Assembly (NCBI RefSeq): GCF_016862515.1
Contig: NZ_BONC01000011.1
Span: 62,001 to 126,000 of the forward strand
Reading direction: 5' to 3'
Source: Asanoa iriomotensis
Lineage (GTDB): Bacteria > Actinomycetota > Actinomycetes > Mycobacteriales > Micromonosporaceae
DNA length: 64,000 bases
Position 1 is the first letter of the stretch. The number at the start of each line of letters is the position of its first letter. Shown here one piece after another: positions 7,677 through 62,735 of this stretch. A program made the translations under genes and the position numbers. Below the pieces are notes generated by a model. That model was not told the DNA's origin, searched no databases, and saw only the letters and a program-made list of their open reading frames with translations.

Positions 7677-7964
7677 ATGACCGCAGGTGGAATCATCACC
7701 GCACTGATTATCGGTCTGATCATTGGTGCCCTGGGCCGGCTGGTCGTGCCCGGCCGCCAGAACATCCCGATCTGGCTGACGCTGGTCATCGGTGTCGTCG
7801 CCGCGCTGCTCGGTTCCGCCATCGCGCGTGCCGGCGGCTTCGCGGACACCGGCGGCTTCGTCGACTGGCGGGAGCTGCTGCTGCAGATCGTCCTCGCCGC
7901 CGTCGGCGTGCTGCTGACCGTCAGCATGTACGGACGCCGCCGGGGCCGAGTCAGCCGGTACTGA
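7677..7964 (+). CDS. GlsB/YeaQ/YmgE-family small membrane protein
   Basis: 95 residues with three hydrophobic segments (about 4-20, 32-51, 65-84). The family is annotated as transglycosylase-associated stress membrane protein; the biochemical role is not established. The glycine-rich first helix (GGIITALIIGLIIGALGRLV) followed by PGRQNIPIWLTLVIGV is characteristic. A near-perfect ribosome site GAGGAGGAAGG ends about 5 nt before the ATG. Single-gene unit with a strong terminator 22 bp downstream. Confidence 0.8.
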   Translation: MTAGGIITALIIGLIIGALGRLVVPGRQNIPIWLTLVIGVVAALLGSAIARAGGFADTGGFVDWRELLLQIVLAAVGVLLTVSMYGRRRGRVSRY

Positions 7965-7986
7965 CGCACGGTAACGACGTAGCACC

Positions 7987-8018
7987 GGAAACGGCCGCCC
8001 CTCGGGGCGGCCGTTTCC
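7987..8018 (+). terminator. Rho-independent-type terminator
   Basis: A 15-bp perfect inverted repeat (7987-8001 with 8004-8018, arm GGAAACGGCCGCCCC) with a 2-nt centre, 22 bp after the small membrane protein gene. It is symmetrical in its T/A-rich outer ends, so it could also stop transcription coming the other way. Confidence 0.8.
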
Positions 8019-8040
8019 TATGTGTGATGTGGAGGCCTGT

Positions 8041-8057
8041 CGTAAAAGAAATTTACG
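8041..8057. promoter_or_regulatory. Candidate operator upstream of the sugar ABC importer
   Basis: CGTAAA-AGAAA-TTTACG is a dyad with 6-bp perfect arms, AT-rich in an otherwise GC-rich region and 66 bp before the binding-protein start. The layout fits a repressor site for a sugar-responsive regulator, but no regulator gene is adjacent. Confidence 0.45.
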
Positions 8058-8122
8058 TACTACTCTGCCGCGAAGAAGGTTACCTACAAACCCCGAGCCC
8101 CCATCGCGGAAGGGAATGCGTC

Positions 8123-18895: not shown

Positions 18896-19577
18896 GCCGG
18901 CACGTTAGCCGAGATCAGCCACCGCCGCGGACGATGCCAGGAAGAAGGTCGCTCATGAGCCGATGACGAATGCGACAAAGCTCAACCACCCAGGACGGCC
19001 CGGACCACGCAAACCGAGCCACCAACGGCGTCCTTCGCCCAACCGCCGCCCGCGAAGCACGGCCACAACGCGCGGGCCGCAGGCCGCCGCGAGCACGAAG
19101 GCCAGAGCGCTGGCGCGGTTCAAGGTGCGAGCCCCGACGCGCGGCCCGACACACGAGGCGCGAGGCTCGACGCGGCGCGAGCACCGACGCGAGGCTCGAC
19201 GCACAGCGCCAGCCCGACGCGAGGCGCGGCGCGCGCCGAGGGGCCCGAGGCTCGACGCCGCGCGAGGCCCGGCGCGGGGCGCGAGGCCCTGCGCGGCGCG
19301 AGGCCCGGCGCGGGGCGCGAGGCCCGGCGCGGGGCGCGAGGCCCGGCGCGGGGCGCGAGGCCCGGCGCGGCGCGAGGCCCGGCGCGGCGCGAGGCCCGGC
19401 GCGGCGCGGCGCGTGGGGCGCGACCCGATACGCAAGCGTATCGAGGCTCGATGCGGCGTGAGGCCCGACGCCAGGGGCGGCGCGAGGCCCGACGCGAGGC
19501 GCAGCGCGCAGCGCGAGCCCGACGGGAGGCGCGGCACACAGCGCGAGCCCGACGCGCAGCGCGGGGCGCGCGGGCGG
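18896..19577. repeat. GC-rich simple-repeat region between degV and the phosphatase gene
   Basis: 682 bp without a credible gene. From about 19125 to 19575 it is built from degenerate GCGAGGC(C/T)CG(A/G)CGCG units; between 19255 and 19410 they are near-perfect 17- to 20-bp tandem copies of GCGAGGCCCGGCGCGGGGC. A perfect 16-nt palindrome GATACGC-AA-GCGTATC interrupts the array at 19427-19442. Open frames translate to Arg/Ala/Gly strings on both strands and are not genes. The part from 18896 to 19120 shows nothing identifiable. Confidence 0.75.
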
Positions 19578-20201
19578 TCAGGGTTGGGTGAGGACGCCTA
19601 CGTTGTGGGCCGTCAATTGCCAGCCCGTGCCGCCCACCCGGCGCGAGCGGTCGCGGAGCTCGGTCCAGTGGCAGTTGTAGAGCGACCCCAACGTCCGCGT
19701 CGCCTCGTTGGGCCAGCCCAACAGCGCGCCGCAACCCTGCCGGGCCGCGCCGCCGTGGGTGGTCACCACCACCGTGCCGCCCGGTGCCAGGGCTGCCGCG
19801 TCCTGCAGGGCGTCGAGCATGCGCTTGGCGAGGTCGTCCAGGCTCTCGAGGCCGCAGCCGGGCGACGGGTCACCGGCGCGCCAGCGGGCGTACTCGGTCG
19901 GGTGGCGGGTTTCGATGTCCTTGAGCAGCTCGCCCTGCCACTCGCCGAAATGGCGTTCGCGCAGGCGTGGGTCCGGCGTCACCGTCAAGCCCGTGAGGGA
20001 CGCGAGCGCCGACGCTGTGTCGTGGGCGCGCGACAGGTCGCTGCTGACCAGTGCGTCAGGATGGAGAGTCGCGAGCACGGCGGCGGCTTCGGCTGCCTGG
20101 TCGCGGCCCCGGGCGTTCAGGGGTGCGTCCGTCTGGCCCTGGACACGGCCCCCCGCGTTGTAGTCGGTGTTGCCGTGCCGCCAGACCAGCAGCCTGGTCA
20201 T
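19578..20201 (-). CDS. Histidine phosphatase superfamily protein (GpgP-like)
   Basis: 207 residues. The catalytic RHG motif is in LLVWRHGNTDYN (phospho-accepting His 9) and the second His in VVVTTHGGAARQG; LRERHFGEWQG is the usual acid/base region. Enzymes in this position next to rsfS and nadD in actinobacteria are glucosyl-3-phosphoglycerate phosphatases (methylglucose lipopolysaccharide pathway) or broad phosphoglycerate-type phosphatases; the specific activity is inferred from synteny only. ATG at 20201 overlaps the rsfS stop by 4 bp, so it is translated from the nadD-rsfS unit. Confidence 0.85.
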   Translation of the reverse strand: MTRLLVWRHGNTDYNAGGRVQGQTDAPLNARGRDQAAEAAAVLATLHPDALVSSDLSRAHDTASALASLTGLTVTPDPRLRERHFGEWQGELLKDIETRHPTEYARWRAGDPSPGCGLESLDDLAKRMLDALQDAAALAPGGTVVVTTHGGAARQGCGALLGWPNEATRTLGSLYNCHWTELRDRSRRVGGTGWQLTAHNVGVLTQP

Positions 20202-24789: not shown

Positions 24790-24802
24790 TAGAGTCAGCC
24801 GG
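24790..24802 (+). promoter_or_regulatory. -10 box of the trpS attenuator transcript
   Basis: TAGAGT (24790-24795) lies 7 nt before the leader-peptide ATG at 24803, so transcription probably starts at or next to the ATG and the leader peptide is read from a leaderless mRNA. No good -35 box is visible. Confidence 0.45.
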
Positions 24803-24841
24803 ATGCGGACGCTGAGTTTCCTCGGCTGGTGGTCGCCCTAA
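24803..24841 (+). CDS. trp leader peptide of the trpS attenuator
   Basis: A 12-codon frame reading MRTLSFLGWWSP, then TAA. The two adjacent Trp codons (24827-24832) lie just before and inside the first arm of the attenuator, where a ribosome starved for charged tRNA-Trp would stall. The peptide is presumably only a sensor and degraded. Ribosome-mediated attenuation with such a peptide is established for trp operons and for the auxiliary TrpRS of Streptomyces coelicolor. Confidence 0.8.
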   Translation: MRTLSFLGWWSP

Positions 24842-24900
24842 GGGCGGCCCCGCATCCGCGTGCCCACGTCAACGGCCGCCCGACTCCGGGTGGCCGTTTT
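24831..24900 (+). promoter_or_regulatory. Ribosome-mediated tryptophan attenuator upstream of trpS
   Basis: Four segments can be read. Segment 1 GGTCGCCC (24831-24838, overlapping the second Trp codon) pairs with segment 2 GGGCGGCC (24842-24849). Segment 2 also pairs perfectly with segment 3 GGCCGCCC (24874-24881), the antiterminator. Segments 3 and 4 form the terminator: AACGGCC-g-CCCG (24871-24882), loop ACTC, CGGG-t-GGCCGTT (24887-24898), ending in TTTT. Stalling at the Trp codons would mask segment 1, let 2 pair with 3 and allow readthrough into trpS, 46 bp further on. Confidence 0.8.
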
Positions 24901-24946
24901 CGCGACCCCCGGCTCGCGCGGCTCCTCTCGTCCCACGGAGGCAGCC

Positions 24947-25864
24947 ATGACCACCACCGTCGCGACCCGCCGCCTGACCGGCCTCAAACCCACCGGCGAA
25001 CTGCATCTGGGCAACCTGCTCGGCGCGATCGCGCCGATGGTCCGCGACCAGTACACGACCGACTCGATCGTCTTCCTCGCCGACCTGCGCGCGCTGACCA
25101 TGGCGCACGAGCCCCGCACGCTGCGCGAGACCACGCTGCGCCAGGCGACCGTGCTGCTGGCCGCCGGGCTCGATCCCGACCGGACGCTGTTCTACGTGCA
25201 GTCCCAGGTGCCCGATCACGCCGAACTGCACTACCTGCTGGAATGCACGACGTGGTACGGCGAGGCGATGCAGGCGGCCGACATCCTGCTCCACGACGCG
25301 ACGCACGTGCCGGTCGGCGACGACCAGCGGCAGCACGTCGCGCTCACGCGGGAGGTCGCGAAGCGGTTCAACCGGCGCTACGGGCCCACGTTCGTCGTGC
25401 CCGAGGCGGTCGTCCCGCCGGTCGCCGCACGGGTGATGGACCTGGCCAACCCCACGGTCAAGATGGGCAAGACGACCTCGTCGGCATCCGGCGCGATCGG
25501 CCTGCTCGACCCGCCCGCGCTGGTCATCCGCAAGATAGAGCGCGCGGTCACGGACTCCGACGGCAGCATCGGGTACGACCGCGCGTTGCGACCCGGCGTC
25601 AGCAACCTGTTGGAGATCCTCGCGGCGTGCGTCGGCGGGTCGCCGGTCGCGGTCGGTGCGGAGCTTCGGGGGTACGCCGAGCTCAGGCGCGCCACGGCCG
25701 AGGCGGTGCTCGGGCTGCTCAGGCCGTTGCAGGCGGCCTACGGGACGCTGGCGCGGGACCCCGGTTACGTGCGCCGGTTGCTGGCTGAGGGTGCTGAGCA
25801 GGCGCGGGCGCGTACCGCCGAAACGGTCTTCCGTGCGAAGCGCGCGATCGGGGTGCTCACCTGA
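24947..25864 (+). CDS. trpS: Tryptophanyl-tRNA synthetase, probably auxiliary, with internal deletion
   Basis: 305 residues, against about 330-340 usual. Class I signatures are ELHLGNLLGA (HIGH equivalent, residues 18-27) and VKMGKTTSS (KMSKS variant, 171-179); VPVGDDQRQHV and VTDSDGSIGYDRALRPGVSN are typical TrpRS. After LLECTTWYGE (residue 106) the sequence jumps straight to AMQAADILLHDA. The segment usually between them, about 26 residues containing TQFKEKS and TYPVL, is absent, with no frameshift in the DNA. The missing part includes an ATP-contacting lysine in Bacillus TrpRS. ATG at 24947 with GGAGG 5 nt upstream. Controlled by the attenuator; likely an inducible second TrpRS. Confidence 0.85.
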   Translation: MTTTVATRRLTGLKPTGELHLGNLLGAIAPMVRDQYTTDSIVFLADLRALTMAHEPRTLRETTLRQATVLLAAGLDPDRTLFYVQSQVPDHAELHYLLECTTWYGEAMQAADILLHDATHVPVGDDQRQHVALTREVAKRFNRRYGPTFVVPEAVVPPVAARVMDLANPTVKMGKTTSSASGAIGLLDPPALVIRKIERAVTDSDGSIGYDRALRPGVSNLLEILAACVGGSPVAVGAELRGYAELRRATAEAVLGLLRPLQAAYGTLARDPGYVRRLLAEGAEQARARTAETVFRAKRAIGVLT

Positions 25865-25929: not shown

Positions 25930-27582
25930 ATGACCACACCGACCGTCGCACCCACGCAGGAGCGCCCCGCGGGCAACCCGTGGCTCGTCCTGGTGACGCT
26001 CTGCCTGGGCTTCTTCATGATCCTTCTCGACACGACGATCGTGAACATCGCGATCCCCGACATGAGCACGAGCCTCGACGCGTCCCTCGACCAGATCCTC
26101 TGGATCATCAACGCGTACGTGCTGGTCTACGCGGTCCTGCTGATCACCGCCGGCCGGCTCGGTGACATCTTCGGCCCCAAGCGCCTGTTCGTGATCGGCC
26201 TGGTGGTCTTCACGGCGGCGTCGGCCGCGTGCGGCCTGGCCGGTTCGCCCGAGCAGCTGATCGTGTTCCGGGTCGTGCAGGGCGTGGGCGGCGCGTTGCT
26301 GACACCGCAGACGCTGGCCACGATCACCGTGATCTTCCCGCCCGACAAGCGCGGCGTCGCGTTCGGCGTGTGGGGCTCGGTGGCCGGTGTCGCCACGATC
26401 GCGGGCCCGACGCTGGGCGGCTACCTGGTCACCGACTTCGGCTGGGAGTGGATCTTCTTCGTCAACGTGCCGGTCGGCGTGCTGACCGTCGTCCTGGCCC
26501 TGGTCGCGATGCCGGACCTGCGGCTCAACCGCCGGCACCGGCTCGACTGGACCGGCACGGCGCTCGCCACGATCGGCCTGTTCCTGCTGGTCTACGGCCT
26601 GATCGAGGGCGAGTCGCACGACTGGGGCGAGGTGTGGGGCCCGATCACGATCGTCGAGGTGATCGGCGCGGGCGTGCTCGTGCTGGCGGTCTTCATGGTG
26701 CATCAGTACGTGACGCGGTCGGGTGAGCCGCTGGTGCCGTTCACGATCTTCAAGGACCGCAACTTCGCGGTGATGAGCTGGATCAGCGCGGCGATCGCGT
26801 TCGGCATGCTCGGGCTGTTCCTGCCGCTGGTCATCTACCTGCAGTCGGTGCTCGGGCTGACGGCGCTGCAGGCCGGCCTCGCGGTCGCGCCGCTGTCGCT
26901 GGTGTCCATGGTGATCGCGCCGTTCGCCGGGCGGCTCGCTGACCGCGCGGCCGGCAAGTGGGTGCTGACGTTCGGGCTGGTCCTGTGGTGCGCGGGCATG
27001 GCGACGGTGGTGGCGCTGGCGGACGTCGGCACCGGGCAGTGGGGGCTGCTGCCCGGCCTGCTGATCGCGGGCGCCGGCCTCGGGTGCGTGTTCGCTCCAC
27101 TGCAGACGATCGCGATGCGCGACGTGCCGCCGCGGCAGGCGGGCGCCGCATCGGGTCTGATCAACACGACCCGGCAGCTGGGCGGGGTGATCGGCTCGGC
27201 CGCGGTGGGTGCGCTGCTGCAGGCGCAGCTCGCCACCAAGCTGACCGCGGCCGCCCGCGCCAACGCGGCCGACCTGCCGCCGGACGTGCGGCAGCCGTTC
27301 GTCGACGCGGTGGCCGGTGCGACGGGCGGCAGCCTGCACATCGGGGCCGGGCAGTCGGGTGCGGCGCTGCCGGCCGGGGTGCCGGAGCAGTACCGGCAGG
27401 CGCTGACCGACATCGCCGCCCGCACGTTCCACGAGGGCTTCACCAACGCGATGAAGACGACGCTGCTGCTGCCGCTGATCGTGCTGGCCGTCGCCGCGGT
27501 GAGCTGCCTGCTCGTCCGCTCGCGACGGGCCGATCCGACGCCGCCGGCCGACCGACTAGCCGAGGCACCGGCGGAGGTCTGA
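25930..27582 (+). CDS. MFS drug exporter, DHA2 (EmrB/QacA) family
   Basis: 550 residues with 14 predicted membrane helices. Family motifs are FFMILLDTTIVNIAIPDM (helix 1, motif D1), GRLGDIFGPKRLF (motif A) and GVWGSVAGVATIAGPTLGG (motif C, drug/H+ antiporter). It exports hydrophobic or cationic compounds with proton motive force. ATG at 25930 with a weak GAGGGG upstream. It lies 65 bp after trpS on the same strand, so readthrough from the attenuated transcript is possible; a joint role in resistance to a tryptophan-analogue antibiotic is a hypothesis. Confidence 0.92.
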   Translation: MTTPTVAPTQERPAGNPWLVLVTLCLGFFMILLDTTIVNIAIPDMSTSLDASLDQILWIINAYVLVYAVLLITAGRLGDIFGPKRLFVIGLVVFTAASAACGLAGSPEQLIVFRVVQGVGGALLTPQTLATITVIFPPDKRGVAFGVWGSVAGVATIAGPTLGGYLVTDFGWEWIFFVNVPVGVLTVVLALVAMPDLRLNRRHRLDWTGTALATIGLFLLVYGLIEGESHDWGEVWGPITIVEVIGAGVLVLAVFMVHQYVTRSGEPLVPFTIFKDRNFAVMSWISAAIAFGMLGLFLPLVIYLQSVLGLTALQAGLAVAPLSLVSMVIAPFAGRLADRAAGKWVLTFGLVLWCAGMATVVALADVGTGQWGLLPGLLIAGAGLGCVFAPLQTIAMRDVPPRQAGAASGLINTTRQLGGVIGSAAVGALLQAQLATKLTAAARANAADLPPDVRQPFVDAVAGATGGSLHIGAGQSGAALPAGVPEQYRQALTDIAARTFHEGFTNAMKTTLLLPLIVLAVAAVSCLLVRSRRADPTPPADRLAEAPAEV

Positions 27583-61820: not shown

Positions 61821-62735
61821 ATGTCCGCGGGGCATCCGATCGCCGGCGTCACCATCCCGCTCGTCACCGTGCTCGACGAGCGCGGGCGGCCCGACCCCGC
61901 CGCCGCGGGGCCGCTGCTCGCCCACCTCGCGGCCGGCGGCGTGACCGCGCTGATGCTCGCCGGCACCAACGGTGAGGGTCCGCTGCTGTCGGGTGCGGCC
62001 GTCCGCTCGTACGCAGTCGAGGTCGGCGCGATGTGGCGGTCGCTGGTCGGGCCGGAGGCGACGGTGCTGGCCACCGCACCGGGGGCCGGGAGGCGGGACA
62101 CCCTCGAGCGGATCGACCTGCTCGACGGCGTCGACCTGGACGCAGTGGTCGTGCTGGCGCCGTTCTACTTCCGGCACACGCCGCGGGAGCTGGAAGCCCA
62201 TTTCCAGGCTGCTGCGGGGCGGGGCCGGCCGATCGTCGTCTACAACAGCCCCGGCTACACGGGCAACCCGCTCACGGCAGCGCTGGTCGAGCGGCTGCGG
62301 TCGGTGCCCGGCATCGTCGGTCTCAAGGACAGCTCTGGGGACGCGGCATTGTTCGCGGAGCTCTGCGCGCTCGCAAGCCCCGAGTTCGGGGTGGCGCAGG
62401 GCGCGGAGGGCCAGCTCGCGAGCGGGCTGCGGGCGGGAGCGGCCGGCACGGTGCCCGGCGTCGGAATGCTCGCGCCGGCCCTCTGTGTCGACCTGGTCGC
62501 CCGGGCGGCGCACGGCGACCACGACGGCGCGGCGGTGCTGCAGGAGCGGGTCGACCGGCTGACCCGGATCTTCGCGGTGCGGCCCGGCACGAGCGGGATC
62601 GTGATGATGAAGTCGGCGCTGCACCTGCTCGGGCTCTGCCCGCCGCACGCCGTCGCCCCCTTCGAGCCGGCCACGGCGGCGGAGATCGCCGCGCTGCGGG
62701 AGCTAGTCGAGCAGGCGCCGGGCCAGCGGGAGTAG
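61821..62735 (+). CDS. DHDPS/N-acetylneuraminate lyase superfamily aldolase
   Basis: 304 residues, single TIM barrel. The pyruvate-binding GTNGEGP (48-54), Tyr 141 in VVYNSPGYTGNP, and Schiff-base Lys 169 in GLKDSSGD are in place. In DapA the motif is YNVPSRTG; here the Arg is Tyr (PGYTG), so it is not a lysine-pathway DapA. Likely an aldolase or dehydratase for a 2-keto-3-deoxy acid or sialic-acid-like sugar. ATG at 61821 with AGGAGGT 4 nt upstream. Divergent from the LacI operon across shared operators; convergent with the AraC gene (33-bp overlap). Confidence 0.85.
   Translation: MSAGHPIAGVTIPLVTVLDERGRPDPAAAGPLLAHLAAGGVTALMLAGTNGEGPLLSGAAVRSYAVEVGAMWRSLVGPEATVLATAPGAGRRDTLERIDLLDGVDLDAVVVLAPFYFRHTPRELEAHFQAAAGRGRPIVVYNSPGYTGNPLTAALVERLRSVPGIVGLKDSSGDAALFAELCALASPEFGVAQGAEGQLASGLRAGAAGTVPGVGMLAPALCVDLVARAAHGDHDGAAVLQERVDRLTRIFAVRPGTSGIVMMKSALHLLGLCPPHAVAPFEPATAAEIAALRELVEQAPGQRE

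What the first reader, a model, noticed from the sequence alone, without database searches (positions are those of the whole stretch)
24790..24946. Complete trp-type attenuator in front of a TrpRS gene
A leader peptide with adjacent Trp codons (24827-24832), three mutually exclusive hairpins that fit base by base (1:2 with one G-U pair, 2:3 perfect, 3:4 terminator plus TTTT) and a -10 box 7 nt before the leader ATG. Attenuation by leader peptide has been described for trp biosynthesis and for an auxiliary TrpRS in Streptomyces; here it is found with a synthetase of unusual structure.
Basis: partly seen in the sequence, partly recalled or inferred. Interest (0 to 1): 0.75.

Follow-up and report, generated by a model that had tools for sequence, protein, structure and literature searches.

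The report
Start-codon-locked tryptophan attenuator before trpS
A real, conserved RNA switch sits in front of a spare tryptophan-tRNA synthetase gene of a soil bacterium; switches of this kind are known, but in this one the first letters of the message, start codon included, also pair with a downstream element, which may let only transcripts already caught by a ribosome stay switched on.

Summary
24803-24841 encodes MRTLSFLGWWSP*, followed by mutually exclusive 1:2, 2:3 and 3:4 pairings; TAGAGT lies 7 nt before the ATG. The genome is Asanoa-like (Micromonosporaceae). The element precedes auxiliary trpS in 29 of 30 protein-selected loci (the 30th is cut by a contig end) and is absent from 21 of 21 loci taken as housekeeping trpS. 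I parsed 84 distinct trpS-linked copies. The type is known: leaderless trpL2-trpS in S. lividans, predicted trpS2 in S. avermitilis.

The first ~7-9 nt of the leader (start codon plus Arg codon) pair with an element between segments 2 and 3. The Arg third base covaries with it (CGG/CCG, CGC/GCG, CGA/TCG, CGT/ACG), and 0 of 2000 partner swaps reach the observed pairing. In silico it closes the start codon once the linker is made (window copy: 85% to 9% unpaired), suggesting an initiation gate.

The synthetase is "unusual" because 25 conserved residues are deleted. Deletions at this place occur in 3 of the 6 genomes of the genus searched, the same 3 that have a second attenuated trpS. No step of the regulation was measured.

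The parts
24790..24795 (+). -10 box TAGAGT, 7 nt before the leader ATG; predicts a leaderless transcript
   Evidence: TAnnnT at 6-7 nt before the leader start in 74 of 84 copies, 0.7 expected
24803..24841 (+). leader ORF MRTLSFLGWWSP*, Trp codons 24827-24832
   Evidence: same peptide with S or T after WW in 6 of 6 genomes of the genus searched, own included
24803..24809 (+). 5' arm of helix 0 (start codon + Arg codon + 1 nt)
24831..24838 (+). segment 1
24842..24849 (+). segment 2 (pairs with 1 or 3)
24855..24861 (+). 3' arm of helix 0 (element X, UCCGCGU)
24874..24881 (+). segment 3 (pairs with 2 or 4)
24871..24900 (+). terminator hairpin 3:4 with short T run
24937..24941 (+). ribosome-binding site GGAGG of trpS
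24947..25864 (+). auxiliary trpS, 305 aa, KMGKT in place of KMSKS, 25-residue internal deletion
25930..27582 (+). DHA2-family MFS efflux gene, neighbour in 6 of 6 genomes of the genus searched, own included

Best explanation
A leaderless, trp-type ribosome-mediated transcription attenuator controls an auxiliary tryptophanyl-tRNA synthetase. RNA polymerase starts at or next to the A of the leader ATG. A ribosome loads on the bare 5' end while the start codon is still free. If Trp-tRNA is scarce it stalls on the two Trp codons and covers segment 1, so segment 2 pairs with 3 before 4 is made and trpS is transcribed. If Trp-tRNA is plentiful it reaches the stop codon, covers 1 and 2, and 3:4 terminates. 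If no ribosome has loaded by the time the linker is made, the leader's first 7-9 nt pair with element X; with 1:2 this closes the start codon and commits the transcript to termination. Shown by sequence and comparison: the parts, their conservation, the covariation of helix 0. Inferred: leaderless start, the stalling response, termination, and the gating role of helix 0.
For:: anatomy and fold; 29 of 30 protein-selected loci carry it; 0 of 21 loci taken as housekeeping trpS match at E<=0.01.: -10 box at 6-7 nt in 74 of 84; with a ribosome masked at Trp, 2:3 forms in 84 of 84 transcripts ending at segment 3 (7 of 84 without mask); masked at stop, 3:4 in 84 of 84; helix 0 of 4 or more pairs in 78 of 84 full unmasked leaders. 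Helix 0: own 17.07 against 15.19 +/- 0.26 for swapped linkers, 0 of 2000 swaps at each of four clustering levels; CCGC[AG] in the linker in 36 of 43 CGG leaders and 1 of 26 CGC leaders; 4 of its 7 pairs with changes on both sides; start codon unpaired 0.83 before and 0.35 after the linker (mean of 84). PMC8079986: S. lividans trpL2 before trpS reported leaderless.
Against: With a stalled ribosome and the full leader, minimum energy favours 3:4 (2:3 in 2 of 84), so the model needs co-transcriptional order. In unmasked RNAs ending at segment 3, helix 0 of 4 or more pairs is in the minimum-energy fold of only 36 of 84. T runs are short: 71 of 84 copies have at most 4 T in the 8 nt after the stem core, and the strict scan finds no terminator. 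Segments 2, 3 and 4 hardly vary, so 2:3 gives no covariation. 7 of 84 leaders have one Trp codon; L049 lacks the stop between 1 and 2. No expression data exist here for this locus.
Confidence: 0.85

Rival explanations
1. Helix 0 is only an extension of the 1:2 hairpin (anti-antiterminator or pause hairpin); closing the start codon is a by-product.
For: It encloses and is compatible with 1:2, and masking its arm costs about 4.8 kcal/mol. In 7 of 7 Streptomyces-like copies the best arm starts at nt 6-9 and leaves the start codon out; in the one printed, L092, the start codon stays 0.82 unpaired. The first base is unpaired in 23 of 76 aligned copies.
Against: Masking nt 1-9 raises P(2:3) by more than 0.3 in only 15 of 84 copies (nt 10-18: 3), so 1:2 alone usually suffices, whereas start-codon accessibility falls on average from 0.83 to 0.30 in 75 copies; 72 of 84 arms include start-codon bases.
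Confidence: 0.4
2. The element works at translation or through Rho rather than by an intrinsic terminator.
For: Weak T runs, no hit in the strict scan; PMC8079986 also reports no uridine-rich sequence after S. lividans trpL2.
Against: The 3:4 hairpin ends 38 nt before the GGAGG of trpS and does not cover it; 3:4 forms in 84 of 84 unmasked folds and its pairs are kept in 100% of cells.
Confidence: 0.15
3. In this species the attenuator is a relic in front of a decaying synthetase.
For: 25-residue deletion of a stretch present in the aligned solved TrpRSs; deletions there in 3 of 6 genomes of the genus, the same 3 that have a second attenuated trpS; altered KMSKS region in the two others (KMGQT, KMGRP).
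Against: ORF intact; dN/dS 0.23-0.25 against three full-length copies and 0.29 and 0.42 against the two deleted ones, full-length copies among themselves 0.17-0.25; fold predicted well, pLDDT 86.9; leader unchanged. A full-length copy, L031, also has an altered motif (KAGKT), so that change is not tied to the deletion.
Confidence: 0.3
4. Chance GC-rich pairing.
For: The terminator sequence is not special to this place: an ordinary-looking terminator within 7934-8089 also scores (E 3.7e-4).
Against: z -4.9, conservation and controls above.
Confidence: 0.01

Closest known systems
S. lividans trpL2-trpS attenuator (PMC8079986, passages read)
   Same: leaderless Trp leader peptide (MMTRTCTQLWRAA), two hairpins, monocistronic trpS, no uridine-rich sequence
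   Different: one Trp codon; no start-codon pairing in the passages read; in the Streptomyces-like copies found here the arm starts at nt 6-9, outside the start codon
Predicted trpS2 attenuator of S. avermitilis and trp operon attenuators of Actinobacteria (PMC1262725, passages read)
   Same: repeated Trp codons, conserved GGCC-type complementary triple
   Different: Streptomyces and Corynebacterium; no fourth helix in the passages read
S. coelicolor trpRS1, indolmycin-resistant auxiliary TrpRS regulated by attenuation (Vecchione and Sello 2010: recalled, not held; Kitabatake 2002 and Vecchione and Sello 2009 seen as titles in the reference list of PMC9437257)
   Same: auxiliary TrpRS with ribosome-mediated attenuation
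   Different: tested by experiment there (recalled), not here; resistance not tested here
E. coli trpL, whose leader-peptide ribosome-binding site is said to pair with a distal leader segment (Das et al. 1983: recalled, not read)
   Same: self-closing of leader initiation
   Different: there a Shine-Dalgarno site, here the bare start codon of a probably leaderless RNA
Leaderless polycysteine ORFs of mycobacteria (Canestrari 2020: seen only as a reference in PMC13236596)
   Same: leaderless ORF senses an amino acid
   Different: cysteine operons; called translation attenuation in the PMC13236596 passage

Membership tests
trp-type ribosome-mediated transcription attenuator | leader peptide with Trp codons | tested here: met
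   adjacent Trp codons in 77 of 84, one in 7
trp-type ribosome-mediated transcription attenuator | mutually exclusive 1:2, 2:3, 3:4 pairings conserved in relatives | tested here: met
   1:2 with changes on both sides in 4 of 8 pairs, 2:3 and 3:4 nearly invariant
trp-type ribosome-mediated transcription attenuator | intrinsic terminator with U tract | tested here: inconclusive
   strong hairpin, short T run; strict scan negative
trp-type ribosome-mediated transcription attenuator | readthrough responds to charged tRNA-Trp | not testable with these tools
   needs an experiment
leaderless leader transcript | -10 box 6-7 nt before the start codon | tested here: met
   74 of 84
leaderless leader transcript | mapped 5' end at the start codon | not testable with these tools
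   no RNA data for this species
T-box or other Rfam family | match to a curated model at its gathering score | tested here: not met
   0 matches in 64 kb
TrpRS (TIGR00233) | score over curated cut-off | tested here: met
   216.3 against 176.75 bits
TrpRS (TIGR00233) | complete catalytic domain | tested here: not met
   25 residues (RMxQFxxK...TYPV region) missing
indolmycin-resistant auxiliary TrpRS | resistance to indolmycin | not testable with these tools
   no assay

The most novel reading that the evidence does not exclude
A start-codon lock: in Micromonosporaceae the 5' end of a leaderless attenuator transcript, start codon included, is itself one arm of the attenuator. The leader ORF can be opened by a ribosome only in the short time before element X emerges from RNA polymerase; later the message is closed and terminates. 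The switch would thus test two things in series, whether a ribosome has loaded and whether Trp-tRNA is charged.
Probability: 0.42. Interest if true: 0.65.

Novelty: new variant of a known kind. Interest (0 to 1): 0.45.

Why it matters
Leaderless initiation is common in Actinobacteria (established knowledge), and how an attenuator secures a ribosome without a Shine-Dalgarno site is an open practical question. A covarying helix that includes the start codon is a testable answer: one arm change and its match should change leader initiation and restore it. It also gives a covariance model that separated auxiliary from presumed housekeeping trpS loci in the sets tried here, and so marks candidates for induced synthetases in antibiotic-producing genera. 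The deleted synthetase raises the question of what a TrpRS without a conserved stretch still does under purifying selection.

Tried and rejected
T-box, riboswitch or other known RNA: no Rfam match. Chance: rejected. Helix 0 as mere anti-antiterminator: weakened, not excluded. Whether leuS leaders (18 of 25 leuS loci by a simple pattern) have such a helix was not tested; I saw none by eye.

Limits of the counts. The tallies of model matches (155 of 354 family genomes; 27 of 396 phylum genomes, both at E<=0.01) overstate the spread: in a 231-kb search, reverse-strand and ordinary-terminator hits reached E 2.6e-6 to 9e-3; 20 of the 30 loci hold no trpS-like gene; and R1 was built on 28 of the sequences. 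The 84 are copies that my pattern could parse and link to trpS. Not parsed or not linked: L049, L051, L057, L118, L151, L166, L169, L173, L174 (eight of these nine match R1 at E<1e-6, L057 was not run), L172, L097 (trpS present) and L157 (leader VRSSAFLGWWAP, no trpS in the stretch taken). Eight copies before a TrpE-like gene (L158-L161, L168, L170, L171, L176) were set aside. Where a leader had several in-frame starts I chose the one followed by an Arg CGN codon, then one with a -10 box, so both statistics lean slightly towards my reading. The 21 control loci were called housekeeping from their lower identity to the window protein (45-47% for most of the 20, 40% for the own one), not otherwise tested. 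Alignments A1 and A4 lean towards the structure counted; the swap test uses no alignment. In one search the +3 slide also gives 8 pairs with both-sided changes, but 26 cells against 63 and 50% paired against 94%.

Full report
What is there. The window carries, on the + strand, TAGAGT at 24790-24795, a 12-codon ORF 24803-24841 (MRTLSFLGWWSP*), and stretches that pair in alternative ways. The 108-nt leader folds better than shuffles (z -4.9, 0 of 200). trpS follows at 24947-25864 with GGAGG at 24937-24941. The strict scanners find neither a sigma-70-type promoter nor a terminator here, since the T run is short and partly in the stem; Rfam has nothing.

Where it is. The genome (8.57 Mb, 187 contigs) is probably an Asanoa species, Micromonosporaceae: the best named hit is Asanoa hainanensis at 79%, and a genome placed in the same genus has a contig of the same length (480091) as that record. 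It has three places over the TrpRS family cut-off: a housekeeping-like one (C7), where no element was found, the window one, and a second auxiliary one (C6) with its own attenuator, MRMTLNGWWRS. In the six genomes of the genus searched (own included) the upstream gene, trpS and a DHA2 efflux gene lie together, and the leader reads MRTLSFLGWW(S/T)P in all six.

How far it is conserved. A protein search of 354 family genomes gave matches at E<=1e-45 in 133. Of the 30 loci that search returned, 29 carry the element (26, L038 and L047, L051); the 30th, L057, begins inside it, apparently at a contig end. As a control, 20 second, more distant trpS copies from the same family, taken as housekeeping, plus C7 gave no model match at E<=0.01 (best 0.12). 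Eight more copies stand before a gene that reads like anthranilate synthase (TrpE; by eye from its translation).

Leaderless start. TAnnnT lies 6-7 nt before the leader start in 74 of 84 copies, against 0.7 expected from shuffled upstream sequence. S. lividans trpL2 is reported leaderless from RNA-seq (PMC8079986, passages). For this species the 5' end is unmapped.

Competing structures. With a ribosome mask at the first Trp codon and the RNA ending at segment 3, 2:3 forms in 84 of 84; without the mask in 7 of 84. With the mask at the stop codon, or with no mask, the full leader forms 3:4 in 84 of 84. Against a simple equilibrium view, a stalled ribosome on the complete leader still prefers 3:4 (2:3 in 2 of 84), so antitermination must be won by order of synthesis, as in the textbook model. 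Segments 2, 3 and 4 hardly change, so their support is conservation, not covariation; 1:2 has both-sided changes in 4 of 8 pairs.

The fourth helix. In the fold the first seven bases pair with 24855-24861. Across 75 copies whose ORF begins (A/G)TGCG, the first nine bases pair with their own linker better (17.07) than with swapped linkers (15.19 +/- 0.26) or shuffled ones (9.16 +/- 0.54); leader bases 10-18 score 4.67. With representatives at four clustering levels (67, 44, 27, 19) 0 of 2000 swaps reached the observed mean each time. The third base of the Arg codon is synonymous, yet it follows its partner: linker CCGC(A/G) in 36 of 43 CGG leaders and 1 of 26 CGC leaders (Fisher 1.8e-11); GCGC(A/G) in 24 of 26 CGC, TCGC in 2 of 2 CGA, ACGC in 3 of 4 CGT (these motifs are not exclusive). 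Three further CGA leaders outside the 84 (L174, L168, L170) also have TTCGC in the linker, by eye. On a model-fitted alignment of 77, helix 0 has both-sided changes in 4 of 7 pairs, the Arg base pair alone taking GC 34, CG 12, AU 5, GU 5, UA 4, unpaired 13; for the whole structure of three helices, 0 of 500 shuffles reach the observed value in any of five measures (this alignment leans towards the structure). The first base is less strict: unpaired in 23 of 76. Arms include start-codon bases in 72 of 84 copies; in the 7 Streptomyces-like copies none does, the arm starting at nt 6-9.

What helix 0 may do. The computed mean unpaired probability of the start codon falls from 0.83 (RNA to the end of segment 2) to 0.35 (to the end of the linker), and in the window copy from 0.85 to 0.09; forbidding nt 1-9 raises 2:3 by more than 0.3 in only 15 of 84. 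Helix 0 of 4 or more pairs is in the minimum-energy fold of 78 of 84 full leaders, but of only 36 of 84 RNAs ending at segment 3. So its main computed effect is to close the 5' end, and it is seldom needed to hold off the antiterminator. I read it as an initiation gate; this is inference. A similar self-closing of the leader ribosome-binding site was, as I recall without having read it here, proposed for E. coli trpL by Das et al. 1983.

The synthetase. It scores 216.3 bits on TIGR00233 (cut-off 176.75) but lacks 25 residues (305 against 330 in three congeners) in the RMxQFxxK...TYPV stretch, which a full-length congener shares with the five solved TrpRSs shown. Congeners G004 and G005 have deletions at the same place with other ends. 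These three, and only these three of six, have a second attenuated trpS (model matches 2 against 1). dN/dS of the window copy is 0.25, 0.23 and 0.25 against the three full-length copies, 0.29 and 0.42 against the two deleted ones; the full-length copies among themselves give 0.17-0.25, so the gene is not drifting freely. A predicted model is confident (pLDDT 86.9, pTM 0.86). I do not know whether it still charges tRNA. KMGKT instead of KMSKS is shared with many auxiliary relatives.

Known and new. Attenuated, leaderless trpS is known in Streptomyces (experimental work on trpRS1 recalled, not held). My searches for a leaderless attenuator with a sequestered start codon gave listings, and I opened passages of only a few papers; none of what I saw described it. 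Most subscription papers are not held, so this is weak evidence of absence.

Noticed in passing
L198, L199, L203, L204, L206-L215, L217, L219-L221: Upstream of leuS, 18 of 25 loci show a leader such as MARAFLLLTEPC or MARAFLLLT with a -10 box just before it, several with a T-rich terminator after it: the leuS counterpart known from Streptomyces.
   Followed up: partly
L158-L161, L168, L170, L171, L176: The same kind of attenuator stands before a TrpE-like gene in other genomes of the family, with a 5'-arm pairing in the six scored and by eye in L168 and L170.
   Followed up: partly
window 7934-8089: An ordinary-looking terminator ACGGCCGCCC..GGGCGGCCGTTT nearly repeats segments 3:4, so the attenuator core may derive from a terminator sequence used elsewhere in such genomes.
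   Followed up: partly
L049:949-1059: One leader has lost the stop codon between segments 1 and 2 and reads on to a TAG inside the linker.
   Followed up: no
window 18950-19740: Overlapping ORFs on both strands with monotonous RRASRRAGP-like translations suggest a tandem repeat.
   Followed up: no
window 62036-62130: ARAGORN reports a tRNA with a four-base anticodon of unclear identity.
   Followed up: no
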